Positions 3,001 to 12,000 of a stretch of 64,000 nt of DNA are shown here, in pieces (positions within the stretch are counted from its first letter, which is position 1; the number at the start of each line of letters is the position of its first letter). Location of the stretch: assembly GCF_020037125.1 (NCBI RefSeq), contig NZ_JAIQDG010000036.1, positions 1 through 64,000 on the forward strand, read 5' to 3'. This DNA comes from Myxococcus sp. RHSTA-1-4 (GTDB taxonomy: Bacteria > Myxococcota > Myxococcia > Myxococcales > Myxococcaceae). A model generated the notes under the pieces. It was not told where the DNA came from. It saw nothing but the letters and a program-made list of their open reading frames with translations, and made no database searches. The position numbers and the translations under genes are program-made.

Positions 3001-6000
3001 AGGCCGGTGGCGCCTTCCTGCCGCTGGACACGGCGTACCCGCCCGCCCGGCTGGAGCTGATGCTGCGCGAGGCCCGGGTGCCCGTGCTCGTCACCCGTGA
3101 GGCGCTCGCGGACTCGCTGCCCTCCCACGGCGAGATGCTGGTGCTGGTGGACACGGACCAGGCCGCCCTGGCCGGACAGCCCAGCACGACACCCGCGCCC
3201 TTCGTCACGCCCGCGCACCTCGCCTACGTCATCTTCACTTCCGGCTCCACGGGGACGCCCAAGGGGACCCTGCTCCAGCACCGGGGCCTGAGCAACACCG
3301 CCTGTGCCACCCGTGAGGCGCTGGGGCTGAGCCACGGACATCGGCTGCTGCAGCTCGCCTCCATCGGCTTCGATGCCTCGGTGTCGGAGATCTTCTCGAC
3401 GCTGCTCTCCGGCGCGGAGCTGTGCCTCGTCGAGCCTGAGTCGCTGTTGCCCGGCCCTCCGCTTCAGAAGGTGCTCGCGGAGAAGCGCATCACGGTCATC
3501 ACGGCGACGCCCACCTCGCTGGCTCCGCTGGAGCCGGAAACCCTGCCCGGGCTGGCGGTGGTGGCCTCCGTCGGTGAGGCGTGCACGCCGGAGCTGGCCG
3601 CCCGCTGGAAGCCGGGGCGCCGCTTCCTCAACGCCTACGGCCCGACCGAGGTGTCCGTCTGCGCCACCATCGACACGGACGTGGACCCGCGCCGGCCGTC
3701 CATCGGCCGTGCCATCGCCGGGGCTCGTGTGTACGTCCTGGACGCGCGGATGGAGCCGGTGCCTCCCGGGATGCCGGGCGAGCTCTACGTGGGCGGTCCG
3801 GGGCTGGCGCGGGGCTACCTGCACCGCCCGGCGCTCACCGCCGAGTGCTTCGTGCCCGACCCGTTCGCCACGACTCCGGGAGAGCGGCTGTACCGCACCG
3901 GGGACCGGGTGCGTCCGCTGCCGGACGGCAGGCTGGAGTTCCTCGGGCGCCGCGATGCGCAGGTGAAGGTGCGCGGCGTGCGCGTGGAACCCGGCGAGGT
4001 GGAGTCGGCGCTGGCTCAGTACCCCGGCGTACGTCAGGCCGTGGTGGTGCTCCGCGAGGATTCGGGCGAGGCGCGGCTGGTGGCGTACGTCGTCGCCCAG
4101 GAGGAACTGGAGCCCGCGGCGCTGCGGCGCTTTCTCAAGGAGCGGCTCCCGGAGGTGCTGGTGCCCTCCGCCTACGTGACGCTGGCCGCGCTGCCGCTCA
4201 CCCCGGGCGGTAAGGTGGACCGCGGGGCGCTGCCTTCGCCCGAGTCCACGCGAGCGGCACGGGAGGACTCCTTCGTGGAGCCCCGCTCGGAGCTGGAGCA
4301 GCGCATCGCCACGGTCTGGGCGCGCGCGCTCCAGGTGCCCCGAGTGGGGCTGCATGACCACTTCTTCGATGACCTCGGCGGCAGCTCGCTGCTGGTGGTG
4401 AAGGCCGGCACGCACCTGCGCGAGGCGCTGGGCCGGGAGGTGCCCGTCACCCACTTCTTCGAGCACCCCACCGTGTTTTCGCTGGCCGCGAGGCTGGAGC
4501 GGGAGCAGCGCTCCGAGCAGGCGCCACCGCCGTCCGCGAAGACGTCCGAACGCAAGGACCGGGGCGGGGAGGTTTCGGGCGACATCGCCATCATCGGCAT
4601 GGCGGGGCGCTTCCCGGGGGCAAGGGACCTCGACACCTTCTGGGAGAACCTGCGCCGGGGCGTGGAGTCCATCTCTCGCTTCACTCCGGAGGAACTGGAG
4701 CCGTCGCCGCTGTTCCCGGACACGCTGCGGAGCCACCCGGACTTCGTCCCCGCCGGCGGAGTGCTGGATGGCGCGGACGGCTTCGACGCGGGCTTCTTCG
4801 AGGTCTCTCCGCGCGAGGCGCAGTGGATGGACCCGCAGCAGCGGCTGTTCCTCCAGTGCGCGTGGAACGCGCTGGAAGACGCCGGCTACGACCCGGAGCG
4901 CTTCCGGGGACTCATCTCGCTCTACGCGGGCTCGGGCTCCTCGGGCGGGCATGTGCTGTCGCTGCTCGGCCAGACGCGGAAGGACCCCGCCTCGCTGTTC
5001 GAGGCGCTGGGAACCACCACGGGCGAGAACGCAGCGACCAAGACCGCGTACAAGCTGAAGCTCGCCGGTGAGAGCCTCAACGTCTACACGGCGTGCTCCA
5101 CGGGGCTGGTGGCCGTCCACCTGGCCTGCCGGAGCCTGAGAGACGGTGAGTCGGATGTGGCGCTGGCCGGCGCGGTGAAGATTTCGCTGCCGCAGCGCAC
5201 GGGCTACCTCTTCCAGGAGGGAATGATTCTCTCCCCCGACGGCCACTGCCGCGCCTTCGACGCGCGTGCCCGGGGAACCGTCCCGGGCAGCGGCCTGGGC
5301 GTCGTCGTACTCAAGCGGCTCTCCGAGGCCCTGCGGGACGGAGACCGAATCTACGCCGTCATCAAGGGCTCCGCGCTCAACAACGACGCGGATGCCAAGG
5401 TCAGCTACACGGCGCCGAGCGTGCAGGGACAGCGCGAGGTGATAACACGGGCGCTGGCCTCGGCCGGTGTGGACGCCTCCAGCATCGGCTACGTGGAGGC
5501 GCATGGCACCGGCACTCCGCTCGGCGACCCGATAGAAATCGCCGCGCTGACCCGGGCCTACCGCGCCCACACGGGCCGCACCGGCTACTGCGCCATCGGC
5601 TCGGTGAAGACGAACATCGGGCACCTGGACACGGCGGCGGGCATCGCCGGTCTCATCAAGACGGCGCTCGCGCTCCACCATGGAGAGCTGCCTCCGAGCC
5701 TCCACTTCGAGCGGCCCAACCCGGAAATCGATTTCGAGAAGAGCCCCTTCTTCGTGAACACGTCCCTGCGCCCCTGGGAGCGCGGAGCCGAGCCCCGGAG
5801 GGCGGGAGTGAGCTCCTTCGGCATTGGCGGCACCAACGCGCACGTCGTGCTGGAGGAGGCGCCGCCCCACGCGAAGGGGCAGGGCAGCCGGCGTGACCGG
5901 CAGCTCGTGACGCTGTCCGCTCGGACCGTCTCCGCGCTGGAGAGGATGGCGCGCGAGCTCGCGGACCATGTGGAGACACACCCGGAGGTGGACCTCGCGG

Positions 6001-9000: not shown

Positions 9001-12000
9001 GGGGCAAGTACCAGCTCCTCATCGACGGCGCGAAGTTCGCCGACACGCACGGCTTCAGCGCGGTGTGGACGCCCGAGCGGCACTTCCACGCCTTCGGTGG
9101 GCCGTACCCCAACCCCATCGCCACCAGCGCCGCGCTGGCCATGGTGACCGAGCGCGTGGCCATTCGCGCCGGCAGCGTGGTGCTGCCCCTGCATGACGCC
9201 GTCCGCGTGGCGGAAGAGTGGTCCGTCGTCGACAACCTCTCCAACGGCCGGGCGGGCGTGTCCTTCGCGGCGGGCTGGAACGTCAACGACTTCATCTTCG
9301 CCCCCGGGAACTTCCACCAGCGGCCCGAGGCCGTGCGGCGCGGAGTGGAAGAAGTACGCGCCCTCTGGCGTGGCGGAACCGTGCGCCGCACCAACGGCCA
9401 GGGCGCCGAGGTGGAGGTCTCCATCCGCCCCCGGCCGGTGCAGTCCGAGCTGCCCATGTGGCTGACGGCCGCCTTCAACCCGGACACCTTCCGGCTGGCC
9501 GGAGAACTGGGCGCGGGCCTGCTCACCAACGTGCTGGGGCTGGGCCAGGACTTCGAGGAGCTGGCGCGCAAGATTGCCCTGTACCGCGAGGCCCGGCGGA
9601 AGGCGGGGTACGACCGGGGCCACGTGGTGCTGATGCTGCACACCTTCGTGGCCGGCAGCCTGGAGGAGGTGCGGCGTCAGGCGCGAGAGCCGCTCATCCG
9701 CTACTTCCGCAGCTCGGTGGAGCTGTTCAACGGACTGGTGGCCAGCCAGGGGCTGGGCTTCGACGTGCGCGGCCTCACGCCCCAGGACATGGAGGTGCTG
9801 CTGGAGCAGGGCGTCTCGCGCTACCTGGAAGCGGGTGGTCTCTTCGGCACACCGGAGACGCTCGCCGCGCGCGTGGAGCAACTGCGCCATGCGGACGTGG
9901 ACGAGGTGGCCTGCCTCGTCGACTTCGGCCTCGCGCACGAAGTCGCCATGGAGGGCCTGCGGCACCTGGACGTGCTGCGCCGGAAGAGCCAGCAGCCGGT
10001 GGCCGAGCCCGGCGGCGAGGTGCTGGTGGAGACCGGCGGCGCCGAGGAGGACGCCGCGGTCCGGTTGTTCGGCACCGGCACTCCCGCGCGTCATCGCGCG
10101 GATGGCGGGGTGGAGTTCCTGACGCCTCCAGCCCGCCGCCGCCCGGCTCCGAGCACTCCGCCTCCCGCGCCCACACGGAGCCCGCGGCCTCGCGCTGATG
10201 AGCTGATTCCCCGCGTGCCGAGGACCGAGTCGCTGCCGCTGTCCTTCGCCCAGCAGCGGCTGTGGTTCCTGGACCAGTACCAACCCGGTACCGCGCTCTA
10301 CAACATCCCCTCGGCCATGCGGCTGGAGGGAAGGCTCGACGTGGGCGCCCTCGGGAGTGCCTTCGCCGAGCTGATGCGGCGTCACGAGGCGCTGCACACC
10401 ACCTTCCAGGCCCGGGAGGGCAATCCGGTCCAGGTGCTCGCGCCCGAGAGCGTGGCCAGTTCCTTGGAGGTAGAAGACCTGCGGAACCTGCCTCCAGCGC
10501 GGCGCGAGGAGGAGGCCCTGCGCCTGGCGCGCGAGGAAGCCTGCCGTCCCTTCGACCTGTCCCGGGGCCCGCTGCTGCGCTCGCGGCTGCTGCGCCTCTC
10601 GGAGACGGAGCACCTGCTGCTGGTGACGATGCACCACATCGTCTCCGACGGCTGGTCCATCGGCGTGCTCATCCGCGAGGCCGTCACGCTCTACGAAGCC
10701 TTCGTGGCCGGAAGGCCCTCCCCGCTGCCGGAGCTGCCCATCCAGTACGCGGACTACGCCGTGTGGCAGCGCGAGTGGCTCAAGGGGCCGGTGCTGGAGG
10801 AGCAGCTCGCGTGGTGGAAGGGCCGTCTCGAAGGCGCGCCGCCCGCGCTGGAGCTGCTCACCGACCGGCCGCGCACCACGGACACCAGCAACCCGGGGGC
10901 CTCGCTGCGCGTGCAGCTCCCGCTGGAGCTGATGCAGGGCCTGCGGGCGCTGTGCCGCCGCGAGAAGGGCACGCTCTTCATGGGCCTGCTCGCCGGGCTC
11001 CAGGTGCTGCTGTCCCGCTACACGGGCCAGGAGGACATCTGCGTGGGCGCGCCCATCGCCGGGCGGACGCAGCCTCAGACGGAGGGGCTCATCGGCTTCT
11101 TCGTGAACACGATGGTGCTGCGCACGCGCCTCGATGGGGACCCGAGCTTCCAGGAGGTCCTCCGCCGGGTGCGTGACGTGACGCTGGGCGCGTACGCGCA
11201 CCAGGACGTGCCCTTCGAGAAGCTGGTGGAGGTGCTCCAGCCGCCAAGGCAGGCCGGGCATACGCCCTTCTTCCAGGTGACGCTGGTGCTGCTCAACACG
11301 CCCGCGGCGGAGCTGGCCACGCCGGGCCTCACCTTCCGGCCCGTGGACGTGGACAGCGGCACCTCCAAGTTCGACCTCACCCTGGTGTGCACCGAGACGC
11401 CCCGGGGCCTGAGCACCGTGCTGGAGTACCGCAGCGACCTGTTCGAGGCCTCGACGGCGGCGCGGATGATGGAGCACCTGCGCACGCTGCTGGAGGACGC
11501 GGTCGCCCGGCCCGAGCGGCGCCTGTCCGAGCTGTCGCTCATGTCCGAGGCGGAGCGCCGCCAGGTCCTGGTGGAGTGGAACGCCGGCGCGGTGGACTCC
11601 ACGTCCGAGCCGTGTGTGCACGAGCTCTTCGATGCCCAGGCCGCGCGGACGCCCGAGGCGGTGGCCGTGGTGTTCGACGGCAGCCAGCTCACCTATGCGG
11701 AGCTGGAGCGCCGGGCCAACCAGCTCGCCTGGCACCTGCGCGCGCTGGGGGTGCGGACGGGAGACCGGGTGGCGCTGTGTCTGGAGCGCTCGCCGGAGAT
11801 GGTGGTGTCGGTGCTCGCCGTCCTCAAGATGGGGGCGGCCTTCGTGCCGGTGGACCCGCAGTACCCCGCCGAGCGGCTCGCCTTCATGCTGGAGGACTCG
11901 GGCGCGCCGCTGGTGCTCACCCAGTCGCACCTGCTCGAGTCGCTGCCCCAGGGCACCGGGGCACGGGTGGTCTGCGTGGACACGGAGGTGGACGCGTTCG

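What the first reader, a model, noticed from the sequence alone, without database searches (positions are those of the whole stretch)
4570..10200. Unreduced PKS extension followed by a C-LLM-C segment
The only KS-AT module has no ketoreductase, and its carrier is followed by condensation domain, luciferase-like monooxygenase and another condensation domain with no A or PCP between. An aminoacyl chain plus malonate gives a gamma-amino-beta-keto thioester. An in-line FMN monooxygenase could oxidise that activated carbon or insert oxygen, giving an alpha-hydroxy-beta-keto, alpha-keto or ester unit, which is the kind of electrophilic motif found in protease inhibitors. The chemistry is inferred; the architecture is seen.
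Basis: partly seen in the sequence, partly recalled or inferred. Interest (0 to 1): 0.75.

Follow-up and report, generated by a model that had tools for sequence, protein, structure and literature searches.

The report
Oxidising cassette in a lipopeptide synthetase
A giant myxobacterial lipopeptide enzyme carries a built-in, non-extending "oxidation station" after its only polyketide step; the same kind of station occurs many times in myxobacteria, very probably also in the enzyme that makes the known compound myxoprincomide, so it is an unusual variant of something already encountered rather than a new kind of system.

Summary
Window 3-20606 (+) is one NRPS-PKS gene, FAAL-ACP-C-A-PCP-KS-AT-ACP-C2-LLM-C3-A-PCP-C-A-PCP-C-A-PCP-TE. 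The KS-AT module has no KR, and no working A or PCP lies between C2 and C3. But C-LLM-C is not a freak. It is the most eroded form of a myxobacterial cassette: [A-PCP]-KS-AT-ACP-C(HHxxxDT)-dead A with LLM inside-C. It was found in 60 of 89 LLM loci examined, six of them in this genome. The dead A has lost its A3, A5, A8 and A10 motifs and its PCP; in the window two scraps remain. C2 is a separate C clade, with T replacing G of HHxxxDG in 62 of 62. The LLM is 50% identical to the crystallised OX domain of PuwE. A 14,284-aa ORF with the same cassette matches the single-gene myxoprincomide locus in size. Best reading: a non-elongating station where the LLM oxidises the alpha-carbon of a gamma-amino-beta-ketoacyl-ACP and C3 makes the next bond. 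An alpha-keto-beta-amino unit is slightly favoured over alpha-hydroxy-beta-keto; ester insertion is unlikely. The chemistry is untested.

The parts
3..977 (+). FAAL (fatty-acyl-AMP ligase), N-terminus cut by contig start
   Evidence: AMP-binding and FAAL models; window = G000:C64:1-64000
1152..1325 (+). ACP1
   Evidence: PP-binding
1404..2741 (+). C1 (canonical HHIIADGWS)
2799..4244 (+). A1, aromatic-like code read by hand (D-A-S-T-A-V-A-V-C, closest to recalled Tyr/Phe codes)
   Evidence: code table recalled
4275..4472 (+). PCP1
4560..5867 (+). KS (TACST active site)
5940..7112 (+). AT, malonyl-type by GHSFGE and HAFH (signature recalled)
7257..7448 (+). ACP2; carries the beta-ketoacyl chain; no KR or AmT between AT and ACP (49 aa)
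7542..8894 (+). C2, non-canonical C clade: HHIVADTLS (T at 7962-7964), VAH in place of F-V/I-N, R in place of P, D in place of Q
8895..8954 (+). 20-aa linker where the N-terminal dead-A segment (about 240 aa in relatives) has been lost
8955..9992 (+). LLM: FMN-dependent luciferase-like monooxygenase, PuwE-OX type
   Evidence: TIGR04020 485.5 bits; PDB 6KET E 1e-110; 50% identity in fold search
9993..10223 (+). 77-aa linker with scraps of the C-terminal dead-A segment (clearest scrap about 10059-10121)
10224..11564 (+). C3, canonical HHIVSDGWS; the likely condensing domain that unloads ACP2
11625..13346 (+). A2-PCP (code read by hand D-V-Q-F-V-A-Q-V-V, Pro-like, recalled table)
13434..16553 (+). 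C4-A3-PCP (same code as A2)
16635..19748 (+). C5-A4-PCP (code D-L-T-K-V-G-H-V-G, Asp-like, recalled table)
19815..20582 (+). TE
   Evidence: Thioesterase domain

Best explanation
The C2-LLM pair is a non-elongating oxidation station. A1 (aromatic-like) and KS-AT make a gamma-amino-beta-ketoacyl chain on ACP2 (inferred from domain order). C2, an altered C domain without a partner A or PCP, holds or gates ACP2 instead of making a bond (inferred). The LLM, an FMN enzyme of the PuwE-OX type, oxidises the doubly activated alpha-CH2 with FMNH2 and O2 (inferred from homology). C3 then takes the oxidised chain straight from ACP2 to the amino acid on the A2 PCP (inferred: ACP2 is the only carrier between KS and C3). 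Evolutionarily it is an ordinary C-A(LLM)-PCP module whose A domain died and whose PCP was lost, sitting behind an unreduced KS-AT-ACP (the decay series is shown by comparison; the order of events is inferred). The final oxidation level is not settled. My leaning is an alpha-keto-beta-amino unit with malonate C1 removed (about 0.45), as I recall for 2-oxo-beta-leucine in myxoprincomide, over alpha-hydroxy-beta-keto (about 0.35); 2,3-diketo or ester products share the rest.
For: Architecture. Same cassette in 60 of 89 LLM loci (9 of the own genome plus the 80 loci), 57 with KS-AT-ACP-C in view upstream. A3, A5, A8 and A10 motifs in 0 of 60, against 21, 22, 18 and 19 of 22 loci in which the LLM is followed by a carrier. 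C2 has T for G in 62 of 62, against 1 of 192 background C domains; T, VAH and R2859 invariant in 62 C2 and rare in 252 other C. C2 is one clade (18 sampled rows, SH-aLRT 100) and the LLMs of the cassette lie on one side of a branch (60 plus 4 truncated, 98). Among L021-L024 LLM dN is 0.07-0.09 and C2 0.05-0.14, against 0.15-0.37 for the dead A, so LLM and C2 are kept while A decays. PuwE OX homology. Myxoprincomide: MXAN_3763-3797 estimated 82.8 kb minus two assumed 20-kb flanks = 42.8 kb; the ORF found is 14,284 aa = 42.85 kb; the locus is written as the single gene mxan_3779 and its biosynthesis involves malonyl-CoA.
Against: No chemistry was tested. The role of the PuwE OX domain is itself a prediction in the passages I saw. 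The recalled myxoprincomide unit could not be verified: the 2012 paper is not held and no held paper has myxoprincomide together with beta-leucine. HH and D of the C motif are intact in C2, so a catalytic role is not excluded. Dead-A dN/dS is below 1 (0.37-0.49 among L021-L024), so it is relaxed, not neutral, and may still scaffold the LLM in relatives; in the L033 sublineage the contrast is weaker (0.19-0.51 for dead A, 0.06-0.42 for LLM). C2-LLM packing in the model is not reliable (pTM 0.55).
Confidence: 0.6

Rival explanations
1. C2 is a normal condensation domain whose aminoacyl-PCP is supplied in trans, so the segment adds one more residue that the LLM hydroxylates.
For: HHxxxD histidines and aspartate are kept in 62 of 62 C2; in the other LLM loci the LLM sits in a working A domain followed by a PCP (22 of 89); trans-supplied A-T modules are described (PMC8949500 passages).
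Against: HHxxxDT and other core replacements are invariant in C2 and rare elsewhere. In 60 of 60 such loci the element that follows is a C, not a carrier, so a trans PCP would have to dock repeatedly without leaving a trace. No free A-PCP gene was recognised beside the window gene among the ORFs scanned; upstream sequence is missing.
Confidence: 0.1
2. The LLM stops at one hydroxylation: the released lipopeptide holds an alpha-hydroxy-beta-keto-gamma-amino unit and keeps both malonate carbons.
For: The closest solved relative, PuwE OX, is assigned to 2-hydroxylation; [quoted passage not shown]
Against: PuwE works with an aminotransferase that replaces the beta-ketone; no aminotransferase fits in any of the 57 AT-ACP gaps here. 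The recalled myxoprincomide unit has one carbon fewer.
Confidence: 0.35
3. Baeyer-Villiger-type insertion turns the unit into an ester in the backbone.
For: Some luciferase-family enzymes are type II Baeyer-Villiger monooxygenases (PMC4631483, title and abstract start in the search listing).
Against: The LLM is far closer to PuwE OX (E 1e-110) than to any other solved luciferase-family chain (next E 7e-18). The polyketide oxygen-insertion enzymes I recall (OocK type) belong to a different flavoenzyme class.
Confidence: 0.05
4. The LLM and C2 are leftovers of a dead module and do nothing; the product carries a plain beta-keto amide.
For: The A domain around the LLM is clearly decaying and the PCP is gone.
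Against: LLM and C2 are under purifying selection (dN/dS 0.20-0.22 between the window and L021 or L022) although the dead A is nearly lost. 54 LLM columns, including most of the W-T-P-E-R and F-H-x-F-G-G blocks, are invariant across 60 + 22 sequences. The cassette is retained in many genomes.
Confidence: 0.07

Closest known systems
Myxoprincomide synthetase (MXAN_3779, MIBiG BGC0000393)
   Same: Candidate orthologous ORF (14,284 aa, Myxococcus sp. CA023) has A-PCP-KS-AT-ACP-C(HHIVSDTLS)-dead A/LLM-C-A-PCP; its C2 and LLM belong to the same clades as the window's.
   Different: Ten NRPS modules against four; dead A kept at about 243 + 215 aa; C3 has HHxxxDAWC rather than DGWS. Gene identity rests on size and architecture; the product unit 2-oxo-beta-leucine is recalled.
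PuwE of puwainaphycin (OX domain crystal structure 6KET)
   Same: OX follows an unreduced PKS module and precedes an NRPS module; 50% identity over 349 columns.
   Different: PuwE has an aminotransferase before OX; no extra C or dead A is described in the passages seen; it is proposed to give a 3-amino-2-hydroxy acyl unit.
MOx inside glycine A domains (myxothiazol, melithiazol, crz-like clusters)
   Same: Monooxygenase nested in an A domain (PMC11342130 passages).
   Different: There the A works on glycine, a carrier follows and the alpha-carbon of glycine is oxidised; here A is dead, the carrier is gone and the substrate is presumably a beta-ketoacyl chain on the upstream ACP.
X domain of glycopeptide NRPSs
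   Same: C-type domain with an altered HHxxxDG motif serving an oxygenase instead of condensing (PMC8949500 passages); 4TX2/4TX3 are among the fold matches.
   Different: X recruits separate P450s; C2 is linked in one chain to an FMN monooxygenase in the middle of the line, and its HH is intact.

Membership tests
TIGR04020 seco_metab_LLM | Score above curated cut-off over the whole domain | tested here: met
   485.5 bits against 244.45, profile 1-341 of 341
PuwE-type PKS-linked alpha-hydroxylase | OX-domain homology | tested here: met
   6KET_A E 1e-110, 343 aa
PuwE-type PKS-linked alpha-hydroxylase | KS-AT-ACP upstream with an aminotransferase before OX | tested here: not met
   C2 domain in that place; no aminotransferase
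PuwE-type PKS-linked alpha-hydroxylase | 2-hydroxy product | not testable with these tools
   needs compound or assay
Interrupted A domain with MOx (myxothiazol type) | Working A core motifs around the LLM and a following PCP | tested here: not met
   A3, A5, A8, A10 absent, next domain is C
Myxoprincomide-type KS-AT-ACP-C(DT)-dead A/LLM-C cassette | Domain order with A-PCP before KS, no KR, LLM followed directly by C | tested here: met
Myxoprincomide-type KS-AT-ACP-C(DT)-dead A/LLM-C cassette | C2 in the DT/VAH/R clade, LLM in the cassette clade | tested here: met
Myxoprincomide-type KS-AT-ACP-C(DT)-dead A/LLM-C cassette | Dead-A segments on both sides of the LLM | tested here: inconclusive
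   Window keeps only scraps; C84 none; orthologues keep both
Myxoprincomide-type KS-AT-ACP-C(DT)-dead A/LLM-C cassette | Alpha-keto-beta-amino product unit | not testable with these tools
   product recalled, source paper not held
CmodAA modifying C domains | DG of HHxxxDG strictly kept (PMC11342130) | tested here: not met
   DT in 62 of 62 C2
X domain (glycopeptide NRPS) | Altered HHxxxDG, non-condensing platform that recruits P450 oxygenases | tested here: inconclusive
   Motif altered, but HH intact and the oxygenase is an FMN enzyme in the same chain; condensing ability not testable

The most novel reading that the evidence does not exclude
C2-LLM is a two-enzyme carbon-excision device: the LLM oxidises the alpha-carbon of the beta-ketoacyl-ACP repeatedly and the re-tooled C domain (HHxxxDT/VAH/R/D) catalyses the C1 loss or acyl shift that leaves an alpha-keto thioester one carbon shorter. 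That would be a new C-domain activity and a general in-line route to alpha-ketoamide peptides in myxobacteria, reused several times per genome.
Probability: 0.2. Interest if true: 0.85.

Novelty: new variant of a known kind. Interest (0 to 1): 0.5.

Why it matters
It gives a precise sequence signature for a recurring oxidation cassette, so that one characterised member can predict the oxidised unit in many uncharacterised myxobacterial lipopeptides. It also points to a C-domain clade with invariant core-motif changes and, in its LLM-bearing module, no partner A or PCP, which would be another C-type fold put to a use other than condensation. Finally it warns annotators that C-LLM-C here is a decayed C-A(LLM) unit that most likely adds no residue.

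Tried and rejected
Trans-acting reductase next door: an OleD-like SDR lies at about 21888-22883, but tblastn found no copy beside the C84 paralogue or in the stretch held next to the P. caerfyrddinensis orthologue, nor in loci L021-L048, most of which do not reach far downstream. The open frame upstream of it (20610-21884) is probably the antisense of a minus-strand nucleotidyltransferase gene. Rejected as part of the system.

Structure route: C2-LLM was modelled with 27 sequences. Each domain is mostly confident but pTM 0.55 leaves their packing undecided, so no claim is made about the interface. A dN/dS comparison shows relaxed but not neutral dead A.

Searches returned none; others returned nothing I could use; 39 did not bring up a PuwE structure paper. 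From these searches I cannot say the cassette is undescribed; the 2012 myxoprincomide paper may describe it. No MIBiG search was possible. Papers were seen as passages only (PMC11619377, PMC13252402, PMC4219810, PMC4902038, PMC5559782, PMC12224551, PMC11342130, PMC10204066, PMC8949500, PMC10212144); PMC4631483 only in a search listing.

A-domain codes were read by motif, not by a trained predictor, and the reference codes are recalled; several domains gave no reading.

Rows dropped before counts: three duplicate rows (MXP, PC and G003C11, the same genes as L064, L021 and L059) before the counts; one very divergent C (L098).
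Full report
What is there. The window begins at the start of contig C64 of an 11.2-Mb genome. Frame 3-20606 (+) encodes one 6,867-residue protein without an internal stop. Pfam, NCBIfam and HMMs built from the window's own domains give FAAL(partial)-ACP-C1-A1-PCP-KS-AT-ACP2-C2-LLM-C3-A2-PCP-C4-A3-PCP-C5-A4-PCP-TE. The AT has GHSFGE and HAFH, which I recall as malonyl-type. The AT-ACP2 gap is 49 aa, so there is no KR.

The cassette recurs. Ten PF00296 matches lie in the own genome. 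HMM annotation of their surroundings shows six KS-AT-ACP-C-...-LLM-...-C segments: the window, C84, C82 (two), C47 and C85. A scan of genome contigs with these six LLMs gave 80 loci, the best of 473 confirmed relatives, annotated. Over 9 own-genome plus 80 fetched LLMs, the domain after the LLM is C in 60, a carrier in 22 and out of view in 7 (three duplicate rows were dropped). Where the next domain is C, the C before the LLM reads HHxxxDT in 58 of 58 that could be read (2 not in view); where it is a carrier, none of the 14 that read HH followed by D reads T. With truncated loci included it is 62 of 62 for C2, against 1 of 192 background C domains. All 30 loci fetched through C2, the window among them, read DT. 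A3, A5, A8 and A10 motifs are absent from 60 of 60 in the first group and present in 21, 22, 18 and 19 of 22 in the second. So relatives carry a working C-A(LLM)-PCP module, while the myxobacterial cassette carries C, a dead A split by the LLM, no PCP, then the next C.

The window form is the end of the decay. Aligned linkers (lengths) show that orthologues such as L021-L025, L027 and L030 keep about 240-290 aa of A-like sequence before the LLM and about 200-285 aa after it. The window keeps 20 and 77 aa, the latter with scraps (VRLFGTGTPARHRADGGVEFLTPPARRR in the window, ARLYGTGTPARHRADGEVEVLTPTARRR in L024). The C84 paralogue keeps 20 and 31 aa with no recognisable scrap. One further genome of the same genus (G023: L117, L151) has also lost the segments. 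Among 24 window-type loci, one per genome (L144-L167, C2 identity 79% or more), 2 of the 23 with the LLM in view lack the dead A. Dead-A segments change faster than their neighbours: among L021-L024, dN is 0.15-0.37 for dead A, 0.05-0.14 for C2 and 0.07-0.09 for LLM. C3 of L023 is an exception among the neighbours (dN 0.43-0.46 to the others; it looks like a replaced C3). Dead-A dN/dS of 0.37-0.49 means relaxed, not neutral.

C2 is a clade of its own. In a tree of 74 of the 329 collected C domains, 18 of 18 sampled C2 form one side of a branch (SH-aLRT 100, quick search). C3 of the window groups with ordinary C domains of the same genes. Columns invariant in 62 C2 and rare in 252 other C domains are T2654 (the G of HHxxxDG), V2804-A2805-H2806 (usually F-V/I-N) and R2859 (usually P); D2862 (usually Q) is also invariant in C2 but occurs in 15 of the 252. 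The two histidines and the aspartate are kept. CmodAA domains keep DG strictly (PMC11342130 passages), so C2 is not one of those by that feature. X domains of glycopeptide synthetases, also C-like with a changed motif, serve oxygenases (PMC8949500 passages) and appear among the fold matches (4TX2, 4TX3). They are the nearest functional analogy, not a membership.

The LLM. Its best solved relative is 6KET, the OX domain of PuwE (E 1e-110; 50% identity). PuwE is proposed to make the 3-amino-2-hydroxy acyl unit of puwainaphycin, with an aminotransferase before OX (PMC4219810 passages). In the LLM tree of all 89 sequences the 60 cassette LLMs and 4 truncated ones lie on one side of a branch (98), in four sublineages: window type, C47 type, C85 type and C82/myxoprincomide type. 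54 columns are invariant across 60 + 22 sequences.

Myxoprincomide. A 14,284-aa ORF in Myxococcus sp. CA023, and a 14,446-aa one in P. caerfyrddinensis, carry FAAL, five NRPS modules, the cassette, five more modules and TE. The M. xanthus DK1622 myxoprincomide region is listed as MXAN_3763-3797, 82.8 kb (PMC4902038). Taking off two 20-kb flanks, my assumption about how the estimate was made, leaves 42.8 kb, the length of that ORF (42.85 kb). The locus is written as the single gene mxan_3779 (PMC11619377), and the cluster is reported conserved in Myxococcus and Pyxidicoccus (PMC12224551). This makes it very likely, though not proven by name, that a characterised cluster has the same architecture. 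I recall that its product contains 2-oxo-beta-leucine, i.e. a valine-like residue plus one carbon; no held paper confirms this.

How it probably works. A1 is aromatic-like by hand reading (code table recalled). In 55 of 57 cassettes an A-PCP directly precedes the KS, and no AT-ACP gap exceeds 253 aa. The substrate of the station is therefore a gamma-amino-beta-ketoacyl-ACP. The LLM most likely oxidises the alpha-carbon, C2 does not condense, and C3 takes the chain from ACP2. For the end state, alpha-hydroxylation is the conservative reading. The alpha-ketoamide, reached by further oxidation and loss of malonate C1 as CO2 through a Baeyer-Villiger-like or hydrolytic step, is my slight favourite because of the recalled myxoprincomide unit. 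Predicted product of the window gene, inference only: acyl-(Phe/Tyr-like)-[oxidised C2 or C1 unit]-(Pro-like)2-Asp-like.

Spread. With the LLM as query, 29 of 61 genomes (own plus relatives) match at E <= 1e-100. With C2 as query, 65 of 195 genomes of the phylum match at E <= 1e-100. By my own stricter cut of 1e-118, 55 of 195 remain, all in the window's family; the DT motif was checked only in the 30 loci fetched.

Verdict. The architecture is a decayed form of a recurring myxobacterial cassette with a very probable characterised relative. What may be new is the C2 clade with its signature and the single-origin decay series.

Noticed in passing
G000:C84:30011-50629 (-): Second copy of the window gene in the same genome (LLM 94% identical), also cut at a contig end in the FAAL; it ends with a C domain after the last PCP and has no TE in the same ORF.
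   Followed up: partly
L146 / L116 (G013:C1 about 8366313-8369473): In one relative the frame breaks 44 aa after C2 and the LLM lies in the next open frame: a frameshift, stop or sequencing error inside the dead-A segment.
   Followed up: no
L054, L058-L097 and own C82, C3 domains: In the myxoprincomide-type sublineage C3 mostly reads HHxxxDAWC instead of HHxxxDGWS, a second non-standard C motif in the same cassettes.
   Followed up: partly
G000:C112 and G000:C60 (L019, L020): Short ORFs with a C domain without a readable HHxxxD motif fused to a C-terminal LLM, standing apart from the cassette in the LLM tree.
   Followed up: no
L034, L046, L062, L083: Records titled Comamonas sp. KCTC 72670 carry four LLM loci, three of them cassettes, nested among myxobacterial sequences; the record is probably a mislabelled myxobacterium.
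   Followed up: no
L051, L052, L062: FAAL-ACP-C-A(LLM)-PCP with working A motifs followed by PKS genes in Myxococcus: an undecayed relative of the cassette.
   Followed up: partly
L023 (P. fallax NODE_60): C3 of this orthologue is only about 50% identical to C3 of its neighbours while C2 and LLM stay at 77-88%, as if C3 (and perhaps the modules behind it) had been exchanged.
   Followed up: no
window 37202-38887 (+): Caspase-fold protein (Peptidase_C14; partial match to the EACC1-associated caspase model, below its cut-off); an ECF sigma factor lies at 35594-36433.
   Followed up: no
window 41886-46907 (+): Very long ORF holding DNA polymerase III alpha from residue about 496 on; the N-terminal 495 aa have no Pfam match and may be a non-coding open frame.
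   Followed up: no
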